This document shows positions 1 to 7,283 of a stretch of DNA of 7,374 nucleotides, one piece after another. The translations under genes were made by a program, and so were the position numbers. The number at the start of each line of letters is the position of its first letter. The first letter of the stretch is position 1. Source of the DNA: Brachyspira pilosicoli (GTDB taxonomy: Bacteria; Spirochaetota; Brachyspiria; Brachyspirales; Brachyspiraceae); contig NZ_SRZM01000151.1 of assembly GCF_019402445.1 (NCBI RefSeq), positions 1 to 7,374 on the forward strand, given 5' to 3'. Below the pieces are notes generated by a model. The model had not been told where the DNA came from. It worked only from the letters and a program-made list of their open reading frames with translations, and made no database searches.

Positions 1-582
1 AAACATATTAAATAATAATAAACTATTTTCTTTTCCTAAAAATATAGTAATATGGTCGCTCAATGAAGTTCTATGAGAAGCATATTTAATTTCTCCTTCA
101 TATGATAATTTGGCCAATTCTATAATATCACTTTTATCCAAACCATTTACATCAAAAATAGCATAAGTTAAACAAGCACATAATGAACTAGATGAAGCTA
201 ATGAAGTATTAAAAGGCAAATCTGTATATGCATAAATATCCATACCAGTTATTTTATATTCTCTTTCCAATAATACAGAAAAAACACCCTTAAAATATAT
301 AGCCCATTCATCTTCTTTATTTTTTTCTAATTCATTAAAAGTAAATGATTTTTTAGCTTTAAATGAATGACCATAAATATTAATTTTATTGTCTGGTCTT
401 TTTCTAACTACTAAATAAGTACCTCTATCTATGGCAGCTGTAATAGTATCACCGCCAGAATAGTCAATAAGTTCTCCTATAAAAGTTAGTCTTCCAGGAG
501 CAAAATATAATTTTACTTCACCTTTTTGTCCAAAGACATCTCTAAATCTTTCTACTAATCTTAAATGTAATTTTGGTATCAT
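1..582 (-). CDS. Galactokinase-like GHMP kinase, N-terminal 194 residues (cut by window edge)
   Basis: This frame opens at ATG 582-580 and stays open to the window edge, giving 194 codons; I translated it by hand. Residues 28-44 (APGR, then IGELIDYSGG) match galactokinase motif 1. 'AAIDRGTY' (49-56) and 'LPFNTSLASSSS' (122-133) occupy the next substrate segment and the phosphate-binding GLSSSA loop. 'SLSDHITIFLG' (173-183) occupies the place of MDQ-ISALG, so Asp176 would be the catalytic base and Arg31 the partner Arg. The family phosphorylates a sugar at C1 with ATP in the cytoplasm. It is a divergent member: the galactokinase EHTDY motif is ELIDY (His to Leu38), the loop Gly is Ser127, and MDQ is SDH. 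The sugar may therefore not be galactose. An in-frame TGA lies five codons upstream of the start, and GAGAAGG (587-593) is a ribosome site four bases before it, which fixes the start. Superfamily assignment is strong; substrate is uncertain. Confidence 0.85.
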   Translation of the reverse strand, partial: MIPKLHLRLVERFRDVFGQKGEVKLYFAPGRLTFIGELIDYSGGDTITAAIDRGTYLVVRKRPDNKINIYGHSFKAKKSFTFNELEKNKEDEWAIYFKGVFSVLLEREYKITGMDIYAYTDLPFNTSLASSSSLCACLTYAIFDVNGLDKSDIIELAKLSYEGEIKYASHRTSLSDHITIFLGKENSLLLFNMF

Positions 583-759: not shown

Positions 760-3408
760 TTATCTTTTTCCAAAAAACAATTTAGCACATAATTTAAAAA
801 TCTCAGATGCTATAATCACTATAAAAGATAAAGCAACTATTTTCACCCAAGTATATAAACTTAAAGGCACAGTATTAAAGAAAGCACCAGCAAATTGCGT
901 AGCTAATATCTGTAATATAAAAGTACCAAGCATACTTAAAAGCACTAATTTGTTATCAAGGAAATGTTTAAATACACTATCATAACCTAATTCTCTACTG
1001 TTGAAAGAATTAAATATCTGGAACATTACAAACATAACAAATAATACAGTAGAAGCTTCAGCATCACTTACATTTAATATATTAAGTTTGCTTTGAAGCA
1101 TAAATAGTATAATCATCACAGTACCAGAATATATAATCTTTCTAAGCATACTAAAAGTAACAATATTAGCATTTCTTTTAATAGGCTTTCTTTTCATTAA
1201 GTTGCTTCTAATAGGCTCAAGTCCTAAAGCAATAGCAGGAGGTCCATCCATAATAATATTTATCCATAATAACTGTATAGCTGTAAATGGAGATTTAAAT
1301 CCTGTTAGAGTAGATAACAATACAACTACAACAGAAGCAAAGTTAACAGTAAGCTGAAACTGTATAAATCTTTGGAAATTGTCATATATACCGCGTCCCC
1401 ATTGTACTGCTTTAACTATTGTAGCAAATGAGTCATCAAGAAGCACTATATCACTAGCCTCTTTTGATACTTCTGTACCTGTTATACCCATAGCCACACC
1501 AACATCAGCATTTTTTATAGCAGGAGCGTCATTTATACCATCACCAGTAACCGCAACAACATTACCCATCTCTTTTATAGCATTAACAACACGCATCTTT
1601 ACTGTAGGTGTACTTCTTGCTATAACAGAAATCTTACTTAAATTCTGTTTTAATATATTATCGTCCATAGCATCTATGTCTTTTGCCTCAAGAACTATGC
1701 TATTTTCATCAAGTATTTTTAATTCTCTTGCAATAGCCCTTGCTGTAACTATATTGTCCCCTGTAAGCATTTTTATGTTTATACCAGCACTTCTGCATTG
1801 TTCTACTGCATCATAAACCTCTTTTCTAACAGGGTCAGATATAGCAACAAAGCCGTCATATATCATATTGCTTTCAAGTTTTTCTCTTATGTTCTCTACA
1901 TTATCATCAACTTTCTTATGAGCAAATGCTATAACCCTCTTTGCCTCCTCCTGAAACTTCTCTATAGCCTCTTCTATGCATTTTTTCTCTTCGCTACTGA
2001 TACTGCACATAGCCATTATCTTTTCAGGACTTCCCTTTGTAAATACAATGCTTTCACCGTCTATTTTAGCTACTGTAGTCATATTTTTAGTTTCTGATGA
2101 GAAAGGATACTCATATATTATTTTTGCACTTTCTCTTATAGTTTTATAATCAAAACCAGATTTTTTAGCCCCAACAAGTAATGCACATTCTGTAGGGTTA
2201 CCTAAAAACTTAATCTGTCCATCTTCTTTATAATCAATATCAGCAGTAGAGTTAATAGCAAAGTTATTAATTATGTTTTTGTCTTTTATATTCTCTGGCT
2301 CTACATAAGCACAATTAACAAATAATTGATTTAATGTCATTTTGTTTTCTGTGAGAGTACCCGTTTTATCAGAACAAATTACATTAACGCTTCCTATAGT
2401 TTCACAAGCAACCATCTTTTTAACCAATGCATTTTGTCTAGCCATTTTTATAATATTAATAGATAAAGACACCGCCACTATTGTAGGAAGTCCCTCTGGA
2501 ACAGAAGCAACAATCAATACTATACTAGTAATAAAAGCCTCAGATATAGTTTCAAAATTAGCAGTTCCAAGTCTAATATGATTAACCACTTGAATTATAA
2601 ATACTATCATAGAAGCAGTGATACCAATTATAGCTATTTTTTTACCCAATTCTGCTAATTTCTCTTGTAGAGGTGTTGAAGTTCTTTGTGTTTTTGAAAG
2701 CTCTCTTGCTATTTTACCAAACTCAGTAGAATCCCCTACGGCAGTAATAACCATTTTACCATTACCAGTAGTAACAAAAGAACCAGAATAAGCCATATTT
2801 ATTCTATCTGCAACTGCTGTTTTTTCATCTGTAATCACGGCCTCAGCATCTTTTTCTACAGGAACACTTTCACCTGTTAAAGCAGATTCATCTATATTAA
2901 GTGATACACTTTCAATAAGTCTTCCATCTGCTGGAAGTTTGTTACCTGTTTCTATAAAAGCAATATCTCCAACAAGCAAATCTTTTTGATTTATTATTTC
3001 TATCTTGCCTTCTCTTATAACTTTTACTCTAATATCTTCATTTATACTATTTAAAGCCTCAAATGCCTTAGCACTTTTGCCTTCCATCACTATTGTAATT
3101 GTGATAGATAAACTTATAGCGATAAATATTCCCAAACATTCCAAAAAGTCAGCATGTCCACCGTTGAAATATGCTACAGTATTTACGCCTATTGCTATTA
3201 AGCCTGCAAATATAAGCATAAGTATCATAGGCTCTTTTAATGATTCTAATATTTTTTGAATCAATGTGGCACTTTTTTCTTTGGTAAAACTATTAGCACC
3301 ATATTTCTCTAAGCTTAATTTTTGAGCTTCTTTTGTAAGACCTATTTTTGTGTCAACATTAAGCTCTTTGAGAATATCTTCTTTGTTTCCTAAAAAGCTA
3401 CTCATCAT
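760..3408 (-). CDS. P2-type cation-transporting ATPase (SPCA/Pmr1-like, probable Mn2+/Ca2+ exporter)
   Basis: An 882-residue pump, a normal length for the P2A group. From the chosen start, visible motifs are: a cytoplasmic N-terminus; TM1-TM2 at about 59-108; actuator TGES (178-181); TM4 with VPEGLP (303-308, Glu305 a cation ligand); CSDKTGTLT with phosphorylated Asp347; nucleotide-binding KGSPE (458-462); MLTGDN (547-552); and hinge TGDGINDAPA (621-630). Membrane segments follow to the end. TM5 has QLTVN with Asn689. TM6 reads WINIIMDGPPAIALG, with Asn717 and Asp721, as in Golgi SPCA/Pmr1 pumps. The acidic TM5 ligand of SERCA is absent, so one ion per cycle is expected. The longest frame begins at 3471, but its first 21 codons lie in the leader terminator. 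ATG 3408 follows GAGAGG by nine bases (ATG 3405 is also possible). The upstream manganese riboswitch points to inner-membrane Mn2+ export; Ca2+ may also be carried. Confidence 0.93.
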   Translation of the reverse strand: MMSSFLGNKEDILKELNVDTKIGLTKEAQKLSLEKYGANSFTKEKSATLIQKILESLKEPMILMLIFAGLIAIGVNTVAYFNGGHADFLECLGIFIAISLSITITIVMEGKSAKAFEALNSINEDIRVKVIREGKIEIINQKDLLVGDIAFIETGNKLPADGRLIESVSLNIDESALTGESVPVEKDAEAVITDEKTAVADRINMAYSGSFVTTGNGKMVITAVGDSTEFGKIARELSKTQRTSTPLQEKLAELGKKIAIIGITASMIVFIIQVVNHIRLGTANFETISEAFITSIVLIVASVPEGLPTIVAVSLSINIIKMARQNALVKKMVACETIGSVNVICSDKTGTLTENKMTLNQLFVNCAYVEPENIKDKNIINNFAINSTADIDYKEDGQIKFLGNPTECALLVGAKKSGFDYKTIRESAKIIYEYPFSSETKNMTTVAKIDGESIVFTKGSPEKIMAMCSISSEEKKCIEEAIEKFQEEAKRVIAFAHKKVDDNVENIREKLESNMIYDGFVAISDPVRKEVYDAVEQCRSAGINIKMLTGDNIVTARAIARELKILDENSIVLEAKDIDAMDDNILKQNLSKISVIARSTPTVKMRVVNAIKEMGNVVAVTGDGINDAPAIKNADVGVAMGITGTEVSKEASDIVLLDDSFATIVKAVQWGRGIYDNFQRFIQFQLTVNFASVVVVLLSTLTGFKSPFTAIQLLWINIIMDGPPAIALGLEPIRSNLMKRKPIKRNANIVTFSMLRKIIYSGTVMIILFMLQSKLNILNVSDAEASTVLFVMFVMFQIFNSFNSRELGYDSVFKHFLDNKLVLLSMLGTFILQILATQFAGAFFNTVPLSLYTWVKIVALSFIVIIASEIFKLCAKLFFGKR

Positions 3409-3417
3409 AAAATACAA

Positions 3418-3423
3418 CCTCTC
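3418..3423 (-). promoter_or_regulatory. Ribosome binding site that sets the ATPase start
   Basis: GAGAGG on the minus strand lies nine bases before ATG 3408-3406 and twelve before the adjacent ATG 3405-3403. The upstream in-frame ATGs at 3471 and 3453 lie in or just after the terminator hairpin and its U tract, with no purine-rich site at a suitable distance. This supports starting the ATPase at MMSSF rather than at MHESF. Confidence 0.75.
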
Positions 3424-3453
3424 ATTAAATAATAAACTGTATAAAAAATGCAT

Positions 3454-3523
3454 AAAAAAAGACTCATGCATAAATAAATCATCAAAGTTTTTTTTACTGT
3501 GAAAATTTATTTATACCTGAGTC
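3454..3523 (-). terminator. Riboswitch-controlled intrinsic terminator in the ATPase leader
   Basis: On the minus strand GACTCAGGTATAAATAAAT (3523-3505) pairs with ATTTATTTATGCATGAGTC (3479-3461). The stem has 6 bp (GACTCA/TGAGTC), a 3-nt internal loop and then 10 A/U pairs, with a 25-nt apical loop. One extra A-U pair closes the base. Seven U residues (3460-3454) follow at once, the classic intrinsic terminator layout. The 5' arm contains the riboswitch's GAC and the 3' strand of P1, so the aptamer and terminator cannot both form. It lies before the ATPase ribosome site. It could also stop transcripts reading through from fucU. Confidence 0.85.
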
Positions 3524-3623
3524 TCATTAATTAAGGCTAGCCAAACTTCTATTATTATAGTTAGAAGTTGCGATTGTTGACTTAGCCACGTAAAAAATTA
3601 CGTCAACTACTCCCTCTGAGTAT
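3513..3623 (-). promoter_or_regulatory. yybP-ykoY family manganese riboswitch (aptamer)
   Basis: The RNA carries the family's signature blocks in order and spacing: GGGAGUAG (3614-3607), GUCAACA (3581-3575), and AAUGAGAC (3530-3523) just before the closing strand. P1 pairs AUACUCAGA (3623-3615) with UCAGGUAU (3520-3513), giving eight pairs with one bulged U and an A-A mismatch. GUUGAC (3607-3602) pairs with GUCAAC (3581-3576). Inside is a small CGUAA/UUACG hairpin. A second arm is AACUUCUA/UAGAAGUU (3569-3562 with 3551-3544). GGCUAGCC (3542-3535) precedes the last conserved block. Members of this family bind Mn2+ and control Mn2+ exporters and P-type ATPases, matching the gene that follows. 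The predicted effect is transcription ON with Mn2+. Family identity was judged by eye from the motifs, not by a covariance search. Confidence 0.9.
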
Positions 3624-3630
3624 GTTAATT

Positions 3631-3659
3631 ATAATAAACTATAATTTATATAATGTCAA
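3631..3659 (-). promoter_or_regulatory. Promoter of the riboswitch-ATPase transcript
   Basis: TTGACA (3659-3654), a perfect -35 hexamer, is followed after exactly 17 bp by TATTAT (3636-3631). The expected transcription start is near 3624, one base before the first base of the riboswitch P1 helix. That agreement makes it the best-supported promoter in the window. The -35 begins only 16 bp after the fucU stop codon, so the ATPase has its own promoter but fuc read-through can also enter. Confidence 0.8.
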
Positions 3660-3675
3660 GCAAAATTTACATTAA

Positions 3676-4110
3676 TTATTTATTTGGAAAAATTACACCT
3701 TTTTTAAGTATAATATTTGCATATATTTCAAGTTCGCTTGTAGCGACTATTGCATAAACATTTTTACATCTGTCATAATAAGCAAATCTTTCCAAATACT
3801 CATAATTTACTTTTTGATGTTTAGAAATTATGTCTTTATATTTAGCCCACACATCAGGCTCCCTTCCAAAATCAGCATTAGGCTGCATCAATACAACAGG
3901 GCTTTCTACAAAAGTATCTAAAGGAAATAAAGGCATAATAGCTTTTAAAACTGTAGGTATATCTATACCATCAAGTCTTATTATTTTTTTCACGTTGTAG
4001 TCATGAGAAGGAAAATTACCGTCAGCAAATAATATTTCACTTCCATGTCCCATTTCGCATAATGTTTTTAATAATTCAGGTGAAACAACAGGGTCTATTC
4101 CTTTTAACAT
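3676..4110 (-). CDS. fucU: L-fucose mutarotase FucU
   Basis: A 144-residue protein of the RbsD/FucU family (E. coli FucU is about 140). It interconverts the alpha and beta anomers of L-fucose in the cytoplasm, supplying the form used by the isomerase or released by glycosidases. Recognisable segments are the N-terminus MLKGIDPVVSPELLK and MGHG with the catalytic His22. LFADGNFPSH (27-36), IMPLFPLDTF (58-67), RFAYYDRC (108-115) and the C-terminal YANIILKKGV (130-139) complete the match. All match FucU rather than the ribose pyranase RbsD. The start ATG 4110-4108 is preceded by AAGGA (4122-4118) with a seven-base gap. It lies 90 nt after fucI in the same direction, so the two are very likely one transcript. 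No truncation or missing key residue is seen. Confidence 0.95.
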   Translation of the reverse strand: MLKGIDPVVSPELLKTLCEMGHGSEILFADGNFPSHDYNVKKIIRLDGIDIPTVLKAIMPLFPLDTFVESPVVLMQPNADFGREPDVWAKYKDIISKHQKVNYEYLERFAYYDRCKNVYAIVATSELEIYANIILKKGVIFPNK

Positions 4111-4148
4111 ATCTAAATCCTTAAATAAAATTTTAATATTTTTAATAA

Positions 4149-4184
4149 AAGCCCCATTTAATAATAATTTATTAAATGGAGCTT
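4149..4184 (-). terminator. fucI-fucU intercistronic hairpin
   Basis: The 90-nt gap between fucI and fucU contains a near-perfect hairpin. On the minus strand AAGC-U-CCAUUUAAUAA is followed by a 4-nt loop and a matching 3' arm ending in GCUU, giving 15 pairs with one internal mismatch. Only four U residues follow before the run is broken (UUUUAUUAAA), so it is at best a partial terminator. It may instead be a 3'-end stabiliser or processing point that sets the fucI:fucU ratio. The structure is plain in the sequence; the role is inferred. Confidence 0.55.
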
Positions 4185-4200
4185 AAAAAATAATAATTAA

Positions 4201-5982
4201 TTATTTAGTTACTTTTCCAAATAAAGGTCCAAAATGTTTACAAGCTCTGAAATCAGCACCTTCTAAATCTTTTGTACCAAATGCTTTCCAAGCTTTAGGT
4301 CTAAATACTTTCTCTTCACTTACGTTATGCATACTTACAGGTATACGAAGCATAGAAGCTAATGTAATTAAATCAGCACCGATATGACCATAAGCAGCAG
4401 CACAATGGTTAGCACCCCAATCATTCATTACAGAATAAACATCTTTGAAAGAATCTTTACCTGTAAGTATAGGAGCAAACCAAGTAGTAGGCCAAGTAGA
4501 GTCAGTTCTTTTGTTAATAGGATCAAATATACTATTATCAATATTAACAGCATAACCTTCAGCTATTTGAAGTACAGGACCATAACCTTTAACTAAATTA
4601 AGTCTGATTATAGTCATAGGCATTTCACCTTTAGTTAAGAAAGTAGATGAGAATCCGCCTCCTCTAAAATATTCTCTGCTTGCAGGAGAGAACTCTGTAG
4701 CATCAAGACATTTTTTAGCCTCTTCTTCAGTAATATTCCAATATTCTTTTAAAGCAGGATTTCCATTAACTTTTTGTTCACCAGTCCAGTCTAAAGAAGC
4801 AGCACCAGAATTGATTAAGTGAATAATACCATTTTTAGCTTTTCCAGTAAGCTCTTTACCAGTAACTCTTTTTACAGCTTCAGGACTCCAATAAGTTCTA
4901 ACATCAGCAAAAAGCTGAGATTTGCAAGTTAATAAATGAGCAAATAGCATAGAAAGACCATTCAAAGAGTCATTTTCAGTAGCAACAACGTAAGGTTCTC
5001 TTATACCATTCCAGTCAAAAGATGAGTTAAGAATAGCTTCAGCAAAGTCACCATTAGGCATAAAGTCAGTCCAATGTCTTTGACCTTGGAAACCTCCAGC
5101 TATAGCATTATGACCTTGTGCTTCTTCTATATATCCCATTTCTGCCAACTTAGGGTTACCTACCATTAAGTCACGCATAATCATAGCCATTTTTATAGAA
5201 GTAGCCCATTCTTTTTCTTTTTCTTCTGGAGTAGCTTGTACTTTATTTTTATCAACTCCAAACTTACATTGTTTAGCCCATTCCCAAGCTTTTTTGAACT
5301 CTTCTTTGTCATAGATTTCTAGTTCTAATCTTCTTTTGATTTCACTCATATCCACAAATTCAGTTCTCATTCCTAAATAGTCAAGTAAAAACTCAGCATC
5401 AACCATAGAACCCATAATACCCATAGCAACATATCCCATACTTATATATGATTGATCTTTCATAGTAGCAACAGCAAGACCAGCTCTTACAAATCTTAAT
5501 ATTTTTTCTTTAACATCATCAGGAACATTTTCATCACCTGCATCTTGAACATCTTTACCATAAATAGAAAATACAGGAAGTCCTAATTGAGTATGACCAG
5601 CATCAGCAGCAGCCAAATAAACTGCCCCTGGTCTTTCAGTACCATTAAATCCCCAAATTGCTTTAGGTATAGCAGGAGTCATATCAATAGTCTCAGAACC
5701 ATAACACCAACAAGGTGTAACAGTAAGAGTTAATTTAACATTATTTTCATCAAATTTTTTCTGACATCTAGCAGCTTCAGCAACTCCTCCAATTGTAGTA
5801 TCAGCTATTACACATTCAACTTTTTCACCACTAGGATGTTTAATATTTTCTTCTATTAGTTTTGCAGCTATTTTAGCCATATTCATAGTGGTATCTTCTA
5901 ATGACTCTCTAACGCCATTTCTTCTGCCGTCTATGACAGGCCTTATACCAACTTTTGGTAAATTATTTTGCATTCTAAACAT
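4201..5982 (-). CDS. fucI: L-fucose isomerase FucI
   Basis: A 593-residue protein, essentially the E. coli FucI length (591). It converts L-fucose to L-fuculose (and commonly D-arabinose to D-ribulose) in the cytoplasm, using Mn2+. The start [20 protein letters not shown] and the segments [10 protein letters not shown] (88-97), [10 protein letters not shown] (140-149) and [13 protein letters not shown] (299-311) are typical. The metal and catalytic ligands are present: Glu336 in VATENDS, Asp360 in LFADVRTYW, and His526 in [13 protein letters not shown], equivalent to E. coli Glu337, Asp361 and His528. The start at ATG 5982 is supported by a strong AGGAGG (5998-5993), ten bases upstream; the next in-frame ATG, at codon 4, is too far from it. 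The gene is followed by fucU and preceded by a LacI-type regulator. Fuculose kinase, aldolase and permease genes are not in the window. Confidence 0.98.
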
Positions 5983-6062
5983 ATTATATTTTCCTCCTTT
6001 TTATTTTTTTATATAATTATCAAATATTTTTCAATTTATATACTAATAACTATTTTCTATTC

Positions 6063-6097
6063 ACTTATATTTTAGTAAAAAAAATAAGTATAATCAA
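6063..6097 (-). promoter_or_regulatory. Candidate fucI promoter with operator-like inverted repeat
   Basis: TTGATT (6097-6092) is followed after 17 bp by TAAAAT (6074-6069) on the minus strand, giving a start near 6062 and a leader of about 80 nt before fucI. The inverted hexamers ACTTAT (6063-6068) and ATAAGT (6084-6089) flank the -10 element, a position at which a repressor could block polymerase. In DNA with this composition such matches occur by chance, so it is a candidate only. Confidence 0.35.
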
Positions 6098-6156
6098 TAT
6101 TTTTGTGTCTTTTTTTTATATAAAATTGTATTTTTTTTAAAATTGTTTCAATATTC

Positions 6157-6233
6157 TTGATTTATTTTCAAAAGTCATTATTTTTTGATTTATTTTAAAA
6201 CAAATTATTATTTTTTTATTGTTTATTTTACAA
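6157..6233. promoter_or_regulatory. Cluster of TTG(N)CAA-type boxes upstream of fucI
   Basis: Two 15-bp imperfect palindromes share one layout: TTGATTTATTTTCAA (6157-6171) and TTGTTTATTTTACAA (6219-6233), each with 4-bp arms around seven A/T bases. A third similar box, TTGATTTATTTTAAAA (6185-6200), keeps only the left arm. On the other strand the second reads TTGTAAAATAAACAA, similar in half-sites to LacI-family operators but without the usual central CG. They are candidate binding sites for the adjacent regulator. Confidence 0.35.
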
Positions 6234-6299
6234 CTATAGTATTAAACTTATTATTATATGCAATTTTATATCCTAAATAAATATATAAAACTAATTGTA

Positions 6300-7283
6300 T
6301 TATTTCTTTTCACTTCCTCTCAAATGAAATTGAGCAGAATAATTATATATTTGCTTAGACATATTTATTGGTTTTCTATCTATTAGAATAGAAGTTGCAT
6401 TAGCACCTATATCAAATGCTGGAAACACAACTTCAGATATATTCATATTTTCTGAATACAAATTTTCTAACTTATCAAATGTCATCATAGAAACATCTTT
6501 AGGTATTGATATATTCTTTTCTCTAAATGCTCTAAGTATGCCAATAGCCAAAATTTGATTAGCTACTAACACAGAGTCAAATTTTATTTTCTTATTTTCT
6601 ATTATATCTTTTATTATTTTGTAACTACTTTCTGTATTATTAAAATCACCATAATATACTCTATCAACAGTAATATCCAAACCATGATCTTCTATACTCT
6701 GTAAAAAACCATCTCTTCTCTCTTGAGCATTACTCAAATTAGAATTTCCTGTTACTATTATTGGATTTTTAGCACCTCCTTCTATTAATAAATCTGTTGC
6801 TTTTTTGGCGGCACTAAAATTATCTGGTAAATTTTTTATATATATAGATTCAAATTCCAAATTTCTATCAACTAACGATATAATGTTATTATTATTTGAT
6901 GTATATGGAGGTCTATCTCTCTTAGCAGATGCTGGAACCCATATTATGCCTATATTACTTTCATTTTCCAATCTAGAAAATATCTTTATTTCTTCTTCTA
7001 TCAATTCATTTGTCAAATATATCTCAAAAGTAATATTATTTTTTTGAACAACATGTATTATTCCACTAAATAAATCTAAATAAAATGTATTTCTTAAGTC
7101 TGGTATAATTAATACTATTCGTTTTACACAATTTATATTAAAATATTTATCCATCCCCTTGTTTTTTAATACATCATTTACCTTATTTCTAGTAGATTCT
7201 TTAACAGAATTTGGATTTTTTAGCATTTTTGAAATTGTAGCAACAGAAATACCACTTATTCTAGACAATTCTCTTATTTTCAA
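6300..7283 (-). CDS. LacI/GalR-family transcriptional regulator, probably of the fuc genes
   Basis: A 327-residue regulator of normal family length. Residues 3-43 form the helix-turn-helix headpiece (IRELSRISGISVATISKMLKNPNSVKESTRNKV). The periplasmic-binding-protein-like core follows, with IIPDLRNTFY (59-68), LVDRN (137-141), QERRDGF (187-193), FDSVLVANQILAIGILRAFRE (split between 235 and 255), MTFD (267-270) and FHLRGS (319-324). The usual hinge helix pattern (PN-x-x-AR-x-L) is missing. KYFNINCVKR stands in its place and the linker is about five residues shorter, so DNA contact there should differ. The start is TTG 7283-7281: it gives the exact headpiece N-terminus, has AAGGAA eight bases before it, and no ATG lies between it and the upstream in-frame TAA. 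Its place directly upstream of fucI suggests it senses fucose or a derivative; that is inference from position. Confidence 0.9.
   Translation of the reverse strand: MKIRELSRISGISVATISKMLKNPNSVKESTRNKVNDVLKNKGMDKYFNINCVKRIVLIIPDLRNTFYLDLFSGIIHVVQKNNITFEIYLTNELIEEEIKIFSRLENESNIGIIWVPASAKRDRPPYTSNNNNIISLVDRNLEFESIYIKNLPDNFSAAKKATDLLIEGGAKNPIIVTGNSNLSNAQERRDGFLQSIEDHGLDITVDRVYYGDFNNTESSYKIIKDIIENKKIKFDSVLVANQILAIGILRAFREKNISIPKDVSMMTFDKLENLYSENMNISEVVFPAFDIGANATSILIDRKPINMSKQIYNYSAQFHLRGSEKK

What the first reader, a model, noticed from the sequence alone, without database searches (positions are those of the whole stretch)
3513..3623. Manganese riboswitch (yybP-ykoY type) in front of a P-type ATPase
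The leader RNA shows the family's conserved blocks (GGGAGUAG, GUCAACA, AAUGAGAC) in the right order, two helical arms and a closing P1, and the promoter would start transcription one base before P1. The family is known to sense Mn2+ and to control Mn2+ exporters. Here it precedes a pump of a Mn2+/Ca2+-transporting class, so ligand and gene function agree. If the genome is a spirochaete, as the composition suggests, this would be a Mn2+ homeostasis circuit in a poorly studied lineage.
Basis: partly seen in the sequence, partly recalled or inferred. Interest (0 to 1): 0.75.

Follow-up and report, generated by a model that had tools for sequence, protein, structure and literature searches.

The report
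Manganese riboswitch before spirochaete metal pump
In Brachyspira gut spirochaetes, the stretch in front of a calcium-pump-like P-type ATPase gene carries a conserved, covarying RNA element of the manganese-riboswitch kind, which likely lets the pump's message be completed only when manganese is plentiful; it is a new example of a known kind of switch.

Summary
The minus-strand element at 3513-3623 has the three blocks in order, with P1, P2 and P3. It matches in 24 of 26 Brachyspira-genus genomes, the same 24 that have the full ATPase. A covariance model built only from Brachyspira leaders finds leaders of MntP and GDT1 exporter genes in the same phylum (E 3.9e-13 to 7.5e-7), and the leader of the orthologous ATPase in two Lachnospiraceae (E about 1e-15); it does not find the E. 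coli leaders. Across lineages 18 of 30 pairs have two-sided changes. The P1.1 3' strand is also the 5' arm of a U-tailed terminator in 24 of 24 leaders, as in the L. lactis Mn2+-ON switch. There is no P4 (three-way junction), as reported for S. pneumoniae mgtA. Mn2+ binding and transport are inferred, not tested. Verdict: new member of a known kind; no held paper names yybP-ykoY and Brachyspira together. Brachyspira-specific details are an altered L3 loop (UCGC) and a predicted hairpin hiding the metal loop L1.

The parts
3654..3659 (-). -35 box TTGACA
   Evidence: 11 of 12 consensus matches together with the -10 box; letters checked
3631..3636 (-). -10 box TATTAT, 17-nt spacer; predicted start near 3624
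   Evidence: the start is a prediction
3513..3623 (-). manganese-riboswitch aptamer (whole element)
   Evidence: genus model R1 match 3513-3623; 24 of 26 genomes
3619..3623 (-). P1.1 outer 5' strand AUACU; overlaps the L1-hiding strand UACUC
3618..3622 (-). UACUC, can pair with GAGUA of L1 (predicted OFF-state hairpin)
   Evidence: one pair of it has predicted probability 0.98-1.00 in the full-length leaders of 24 genomes
3614..3616 (-). P1.1 inner 5' strand GAG
3608..3613 (-). L1 5' side GGAGUA
   Evidence: invariant in 24 leaders
3605..3607 (-). P1.2 5' strand GUU
   Evidence: 3 of 3 pairs with two-sided changes across lineages
3588..3603 (-). P2 hairpin
   Evidence: two-sided changes in 2 of 5 pairs within the genus
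3578..3587 (-). P3.1 5' strand GGCUA-A-GUCA
3570..3577 (-). L3 loop ACAAUCGC, with the discriminator adenosine near 3575
   Evidence: A follows CAAC in 64 of 64 leaders; its role from PMC6754395 passages
3544..3569 (-). P3.2 hairpin
   Evidence: 5 of 5 pairs with two-sided changes across lineages
3535..3543 (-). P3.1 3' strand UGGC-UAGCC
3529..3534 (-). UUAAUU linker where four-way members have P4
   Evidence: tail from UGG to GAGAC is 23 nt in 61 of 62 leaders scored
3526..3528 (-). P1.2 3' strand AAU
3522..3525 (-). L1 3' side GAGA
   Evidence: invariant in 24 leaders
3513..3521 (-). P1.1 3' strand CUC-A-GGUAU, shared with the terminator
3461..3523 (-). intrinsic-terminator hairpin, 5' arm overlaps P1.1
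   Evidence: 99.8% of cells paired over 24 leaders, 4 of 19 pairs with two-sided changes; folds at -23.8 to -32.3 kcal/mol; not listed by the simple terminator scan
3454..3460 (-). U7 tract of the terminator
   Evidence: sequence; 6 or 7 U in the 24 leaders
3418..3423 (-). ribosome-binding site GAGAGG
   Evidence: letters; GAGAGG at this place in 19 of 24 aligned leaders
760..3405 (-). PMCA-type P-type ATPase, 881 aa (start 3405 or 3408)
   Evidence: TIGR01517 697 bits, cut-off 507 (scanned from 3471); full ortholog in 24 and a fragment in 1 of 26 genus genomes

Best explanation
The 111-nt leader element at 3513-3623 (minus strand) shares conserved blocks and covarying helices with leaders of manganese-exporter genes (the yybP-ykoY riboswitch class), and it would likely act as a Mn2+-induced transcription antiterminator for the P-type ATPase gene behind it. 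Predicted course: with little Mn2+, the nascent RNA gives the P1.1 3' strand (CUC-A-GGUAU) to a long terminator hairpin with a U7 tail, transcription stops, and the freed 5' strand folds back on L1 (UACUC with GAGUA). With high Mn2+, L1 and L3 dock around the ion through the discriminator adenosine, P1.1 is held closed, the terminator cannot form and the pump is made, which would lower the metal. Shown by sequence: the blocks, the covariation, the P1.1/terminator overlap, and the link to the gene. Inferred: the ligand, the direction of the switch, and the pump's substrate.
For: Match in 24 of 26 genus genomes and linkage to the ATPase: the same 24 have the full pump; G003 has only a pump fragment at a contig start; G019 has neither. 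Two-sided changes in the genus (4 of 30 pairs, 17 cells) and across lineages (18 of 30 pairs, 81 cells; that alignment is fitted to the structure). A model from Brachyspira alone finds 8 of the 13 loci that the Rfam model weakly marked in the phylum, at E 3.9e-13 to 7.5e-7; behind these 8 and two further R1 loci the gene is MntP in 8 and GDT1 in 2 of 10. The same model finds the leader of the orthologous ATPase (57% identity) in Hungatella sp. and Lacrimispora algidixylanolytica at E 9.5e-16 and 2.9e-15. Discriminator A in 64 of 64 leaders. Terminator sharing the P1.1 strand in 24 of 24 leaders; the predicted P1.1 probability, median 0.87 at aptamer length, is 0 at full length. L. lactis works this way (PMC11087558 passages).
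Against: No RF00080 match at the cut-off in the window or up to E 10 in the leader, none in the genome and none over the cut-off in 29 genomes of the family. R1 does not match the E. coli mntP or alx leaders; R2 matches only the P3 arm of mntP (E 0.11) and not alx. P4 is absent. L3 after the discriminator reads UCGC, unlike the UACUG usual elsewhere. P1.1 never changes on both sides within the genus, and its outer part pairs in only 80% of cells across lineages. Leaders L019 and L023 give P1.1 only 0.35 and 0.12 at aptamer length, and L013 0.26 for the outer part. The simple terminator scan lists no site in 3380-3720 (it allows only short loops and unbroken stems). The ATPase class is named for calcium.
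Confidence: 0.87

Rival explanations
1. Same RNA architecture, but the ligand range has shifted in Brachyspira (for example toward Ca2+ or Cd2+, or a broader divalent sensor), because the L3 loop differs and the pump is of calcium type.
For: After CAACA, L3 reads UCGC or, with one more base, AUCGC in 24 of 24 Brachyspira leaders and in none of 40 others; the ATPase is above the PMCA calcium cut-off; a review passage says the S. pneumoniae mgtA aptamer forms its junction with Ca2+ or Mn2+ (PMC9495176).
Against: The adenosine that gives Mn2+ its nitrogen contact is kept in 64 of 64, and the letters after it already differ between two solved Mn2+ sensors (PMC6754395 passages). The orthologous ATPase in two Lachnospiraceae sits behind the usual UACUG loop.
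Confidence: 0.09
2. A plain attenuator: the hairpin with its U tract is a constitutive or protein-controlled terminator and the upstream conservation has no ligand-binding role.
For: The terminator hairpin is strong by itself and no ligand was tested.
Against: The aptamer part alone is recovered in front of MntP and GDT1 genes; loop letters with no pairing role in the structure (L1, the start of L3) are invariant in 24 leaders.
Confidence: 0.03
3. The ATPase is governed mainly by readthrough from the L-fucose genes just upstream, the element being a boundary terminator.
For: The FucU-like gene ends at 3676, 16 bases before the -35 box at 3659, on the same strand.
Against: A promoter-like pattern precedes 22 of 22 Brachyspira leaders scored, and a boundary terminator needs no aptamer.
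Confidence: 0.01

Closest known systems
S. pneumoniae mgtA Mn2+ riboswitch and Mn2+/Ca2+ P-type ATPase (Martin 2019; paper not held; known here from PMC9331361, PMC9936198 and PMC9495176 passages)
   Same: Manganese riboswitch in front of a P-type ATPase; described as a three-way junction.
   Different: Different phylum; its sequence was not compared here, so neither pump orthology nor its L3 loop was checked.
L. lactis yoaB yybP-ykoY riboswitch (PMC11087558, PMC9190785 and PMC6754395 passages)
   Same: Transcriptional ON switch in which the P1.1 3' segment is shared with an intrinsic terminator; discriminator A in L3.
   Different: Four-way junction with P4; L3 reads UCAAUUC.
E. coli mntP and alx leaders
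   Same: mntP shares GGGGAGUAG, the GUCAACAU..UGGC arm and GAGAC with the window element.
   Different: Both have a hairpin where Brachyspira has the UUAA linker (my reading of the sequences); R1 matches neither, R2 only the P3 arm of mntP (E 0.11).
Leaders of MntP, GDT1 and P-type ATPases in the phylum and in Lachnospiraceae found here (L038-L045, L077, L079, L123, L126, L130, L131, L134-L155, L157-L162)
   Same: Same P4-less layout with a 23-nt tail; in two Lachnospiraceae it precedes the 57% identical pump.
   Different: L3 mostly ACAUACU; P1.1 letters differ; expression platforms not analysed.

Membership tests
yybP-ykoY manganese riboswitch (RF00080) | Score over Rfam 15's cut-off (45 bits) | tested here: inconclusive
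   Not reached: no match. The test fails its controls: E. coli mntP 41.6 bits and alx not found at E 0.01; over the cut-off in only 2 of 14 control genomes; 0 of 30 Lachnospiraceae leaders over it.
yybP-ykoY manganese riboswitch (RF00080) | L1 with GGAGUA opposite GAGA | tested here: met
   Invariant in 24 of 24 leaders; letters at 3613-3608 and 3525-3522.
yybP-ykoY manganese riboswitch (RF00080) | Asymmetric L3 loop with the invariable discriminator adenosine | tested here: met
   CAACA in 64 of 64 leaders; its N7 contact is from PMC6754395 passages. The rest of the loop differs in Brachyspira.
yybP-ykoY manganese riboswitch (RF00080) | P1, P2 and P3 helices in that order, supported by covariation | tested here: met
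   18 of 30 pairs with two-sided changes across lineages; genus alone 4 of 30, none in P1.1.
yybP-ykoY manganese riboswitch (RF00080) | Four-way junction with P4 (usual, not defining: S. pneumoniae mgtA is described as three-way) | tested here: not met
   UUAAUU linker instead of P4; mgtA statement from a PMC9495176 passage.
yybP-ykoY manganese riboswitch (RF00080) | Control of a manganese-homeostasis gene | tested here: inconclusive
   Relatives of the RNA precede MntP and GDT1; the gene here is PMCA-type, Mn2+ transport not shown.
yybP-ykoY manganese riboswitch (RF00080) | Selective Mn2+ binding that changes expression | not testable with these tools
   Needs in-line probing and transcription assays.
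Transcriptional ON switch of the L. lactis type | P1.1 3' strand also forms the terminator 5' arm | tested here: met
   24 of 24 leaders; the exchange is predicted by folding.

The most novel reading that the evidence does not exclude
Brachyspira carries a distinct three-state form of the manganese riboswitch, within a P4-less branch that Rfam's model hardly sees and that is common in Lachnospiraceae. Its 5' strand toggles between hiding the metal loop L1 (OFF, terminator formed) and closing P1.1 (ON), its L3 loop is rebuilt as UCGC, and the switch with its pump was exchanged as a unit between gut Clostridia and spirochaetes, standing in for the absent MntP and GDT1 exporters.
Probability: 0.25. 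Interest if true: 0.55.

Novelty: new member of a known kind. Interest (0 to 1): 0.37.

Why it matters
It gives Brachyspira, in which the exporter families MntP and GDT1 were found in 0 of 26 genomes, a directly testable manganese-efflux circuit. It also suggests that the current Rfam model is nearly blind to a P4-less branch of a widespread riboswitch class: 154 of 299 genomes of the Lacrimispora family match the model built here, while 0 of 30 leaders examined pass Rfam's cut-off. Absence of an Rfam hit should therefore not be read as absence of manganese riboswitches in these bacteria.

Tried and rejected
Rfam scan as the decisive test: negative, then shown to be a poor test by its controls. 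The five weak RF00080 matches in the family (L031-L035) are on other contigs than the riboswitch, or in G028, which has no R1 match; rejected as chance. In the phylum, 5 of the 13 RF00080 matches (L046-L050) were not matched by R1 and were set aside; G088 (E 0.018) was not followed. G231 and G283 match R1 but not in the whole-genome run with stricter filters.

Phage origin: no similar DNA in phage records. A Spirochaetia MAG with a 65% identical ATPase (L120), an archaeal contig with a 38% one (L129) and two with 30% (L127, L128) have no R1 or RF00080 match, so the pump does not always travel with the switch.

The idea that the ATPase is the only possible manganese exporter was weakened: a CDF protein (PF01545; that some export Mn2+ is) is in 25 of 26 genus genomes. 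The longest open frame of the ATPase starts at 3471, inside the terminator; rejected for 3405/3408 on the ribosome site and alignment.

Rows dropped: L011 and L013 from the Brachyspira part (pattern window); L132, L133 and L156 from the downstream-gene count (no core pattern). Of the 154 matching genomes only the 30 best loci were fetched; 29 of these had the core pattern, and with L130 they make the 30 examined. They are the best-scoring ones, not a random sample, and the gene taken was the longest open frame starting within 450 bases.

Full report
What was claimed. The three blocks are there, in order, at 3614-3607, 3581-3575 and 3528-3521.

Where it is. The window is contig 59 of a 2.47-Mb assembly. 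The nearest named ATPase relatives in the one scan of named genomes are Brachyspira pilosicoli (97%) and B. hampsonii, B. innocens and B. alvinipulli (87%); Brachyspira is a spirochaete. The window holds, on the minus strand, a LacI-type regulator, L-fucose isomerase, a FucU-like gene, the leader, the ATPase and a cut galactokinase-like gene.

The Rfam test and why it does not decide. Rfam 15 finds no manganese riboswitch in the window at its cut-off, nor at E up to 10 in 3380-3720, nor in the whole genome, and none over the cut-off in 29 genomes of the family. But the same model gives the E. coli mntP leader 41.6 bits, under its cut-off of 45, does not list alx at E 0.01, and passes its cut-off in 2 of 14 control genomes. 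Its structure line shows no P1 pairs and a long region where P4 would be (alignment, my reading), so an element without P4 scores badly.

Conservation and covariation. The element matches in 24 of 26 genus genomes. In a structure that I named after the known class (P1.1, P1.2, P2, P3), 95.5% of cells pair over 23 distinct leaders against 24.8-37.0% for slid partners; 4 pairs have two-sided changes, reached by 2 of 500 shuffles. P1.1 never changes on both sides within the genus. Over 20 sequences from Brachyspira, other genomes of the phylum and Lachnospiraceae, 18 of 30 pairs have two-sided changes (81 cells), 0 of 500 shuffles reach that, and slid controls give at most 5 pairs. By helix: outer P1.1 3 of 5, inner P1.1 0 of 3, P1.2 3 of 3, P2 3 of 5, P3.1 4 of 9, P3.2 5 of 5. 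That alignment was fitted to the structure, which leans in its favour, and the measure of further pair types does not exceed the shuffles in either alignment.

Independent recognition of manganese exporter genes. Model R1 was built from the 24 Brachyspira leaders only. Of 13 loci that RF00080 had weakly marked among 296 genomes of the phylum, R1 matches 8, at E 3.9e-13 to 7.5e-7. In whole genomes R1 matches 33 of 296: 24 of the genus and 9 others, one of them weak. The genes behind 10 such leaders outside the genus are MntP in 8 and GDT1 in 2. A review table lists MntP and UPF0016 (the GDT1 family, by the title of PMC7380456) among manganese exporters (PMC9936198 passages). Nothing about the gene was used in building the model. 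R1 does not match the E. coli mntP and alx leaders.

The same switch before the same pump elsewhere. The scan of named genomes with the ATPase alignment used two short peptide patterns and gave 19 loci. In Hungatella sp. UBA7603 and Lacrimispora algidixylanolytica (both Lachnospiraceae), with 57% identical ATPases, R1 matches the leader at E 9.5e-16 and 2.9e-15, where Rfam lists nothing up to E 0.1. A joint model, R2, built from 20 sequences that include these two, matches 154 of 299 genomes of the Lacrimispora family. Of 30 such leaders, the gene behind is MntP in 16, a P-type ATPase in 7, a sodium/calcium-exchanger-type protein in 2, MgtE in 1 and an ABC ATPase in 4. RF00080 passes its cut-off in 0 of these 30 and gives weaker matches at E up to 10 in 6. 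These are the best-scoring leaders, not a random sample.

Linkage to the ATPase. In the genus the 24 genomes with the element are the 24 with a full-length ortholog (82-100% identity); G003 has an ortholog fragment at a contig start, so its leader cannot be read; G019 has only a distant match (33% over part) and no element. MntP and GDT1 were found in 0 of 26 (both searches rang in control genomes). A CDF protein is present in 25 of 26, so the ATPase need not be the only manganese exporter.

The pump. NCBIfam puts it over the PMCA-type calcium cut-off (697 against 507 bits) and under the PMR1-type cut-off (617 against 798). The nearest solved relatives are the calcium ATPase lmo0841, a plasma-membrane-type calcium ATPase 8 and calcium ATPase type 2C member 1 (SPCA1) (that these are Listeria, plant and animal proteins is recalled). 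In one aligned stretch, the sixth transmembrane segment by recall, the query reads WINIIMDGPPA, letter for letter as in SPCA1, whereas lmo0841 reads FINLVNDSLPA and the plasma-membrane pump WVNLIMDTLGA. That SPCA pumps carry Mn2+ is general knowledge, not from a call. It is a hint, no more. Among the best 120 protein relatives, 8 of the 10 entries outside Brachyspira whose listed name includes an organism are Clostridia (taxonomy recalled), the others Chitinispirillia and Alphaproteobacteria (names are cut short and most entries have none).

The metal site. Solved structures show Mn2+ held by five phosphates and the N7 of an invariable adenosine in L3 (A41 in L. lactis, A48 in X. oryzae), with UCAAUUC and ACAUACU as the loops (PMC6754395 passages). 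The A after CAAC is present in 24 of 24 Brachyspira, 10 of 10 other leaders of the phylum and 30 of 30 Lachnospiraceae leaders. After it Brachyspira reads UCGC (16 of 24) or AUCGC (8 of 24), while 9 of 10 and 20 of 30 of the others read UACUG. What this does to selectivity is unknown.

No P4. In 61 of 62 leaders scored the tail from UGG of P3 to GAGAC is exactly 23 nt, with UUAA or a near form in place of P4; the one exception, L135, was read at another place by the script, and its core also shows 23. R2 itself lacks P4, so it will favour such leaders. This makes a three-way junction. A review says the S. pneumoniae mgtA aptamer is three-way (PMC9495176 passage; the original paper is not held). 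So this is not new in kind.

The expression platform. In 24 of 24 leaders the 3' strand of P1.1 is also the 5' end of a long hairpin followed by a U tract; the hairpin pairs in 99.8% of cells, with 4 of 19 pairs changed on both sides. The simple terminator scan does not list it. Folding the window RNA at growing lengths predicts an early hairpin UACUC/GAGUA over L1, then P1.1 (0.63-0.84 between 112 and 148 nt), then the terminator with the L1 hairpin back. In 24 leaders the median P1.1 probability is 0.87 at aptamer length and 0 at full length; L019 and L023 are low, and L013 is low in the outer part. L. lactis yoaB works through the same exchange (PMC11087558 passages). The L1-hiding hairpin is a prediction. 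The strand UACUC is invariant in the 24 and was found in 22 of 22 scored against 1 of 10 and 3 of 30 elsewhere, though other 5' strands there also hide L1 in part (mean 0.73 and 0.66 against 0.97). Of 1000 shuffles of one leader's 5' strand 0.6% hide L1 as well.

Literature. No paper in the held library has both yybP-ykoY and Brachyspira or both manganese riboswitch and Treponema. Five hold Brachyspira and riboswitch and 39 hold Brachyspira and manganese, 15 listed; none of the listed titles is about manganese control in Brachyspira, and none was opened. This covers open-licence papers only. Of the papers cited I saw passages or, for PMC7380456, the listing, not whole texts.

Verdict. Observation confirmed, interpretation supported by comparative evidence, function untested. 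It is a new member of a known kind, with a lineage-specific loop and a possible extra hairpin as the unusual points.

Noticed in passing
window 3676-7283 (minus): Probable L-fucose use cluster directly upstream of the leader: LacI-type regulator (6300-7283), L-fucose isomerase (4201-5982, over two NCBIfam cut-offs) and an RbsD/FucU-family protein (3676-4110, 132 bits against the FucU cut-off of 141).
   Followed up: partly
window 1-582 (minus): Galactokinase-like protein cut by the contig end, below the NCBIfam cut-offs.
   Followed up: no
window 3448-3453 (minus): AUGCA after the terminator's U tract is kept in most of the 24 leaders and could pair with the terminator's 3' arm; role unknown.
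   Followed up: no
L140, L142, L144, L150: In 4 of 30 Lachnospiraceae leaders of this riboswitch type the gene behind is an ABC transporter ATPase, not a manganese gene known to me; possible new targets.
   Followed up: no
L148: A magnesium-transporter-like MgtE gene behind the same riboswitch type.
   Followed up: no
L132, L133: Second, weaker R2 matches (E 3.4e-6 and 1.2e-5) in the Hungatella and Lacrimispora genomes, without the strict core pattern.
   Followed up: no
Rfam RF00080: Rfam 15's manganese model scores E. coli mntP below its own cut-off, misses alx at E 0.01 and passes 0 of 30 P4-less leaders.
   Followed up: partly
genomes G002, G007, G009, G014, G023, G025: A second P-type ATPase, 31-32% identical to the window's, in at least six Brachyspira genomes; R1 finds one riboswitch in each.
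   Followed up: no
G019: One genus genome (2.0 Mb, 99% complete) lacks both riboswitch and pump ortholog.
   Followed up: no
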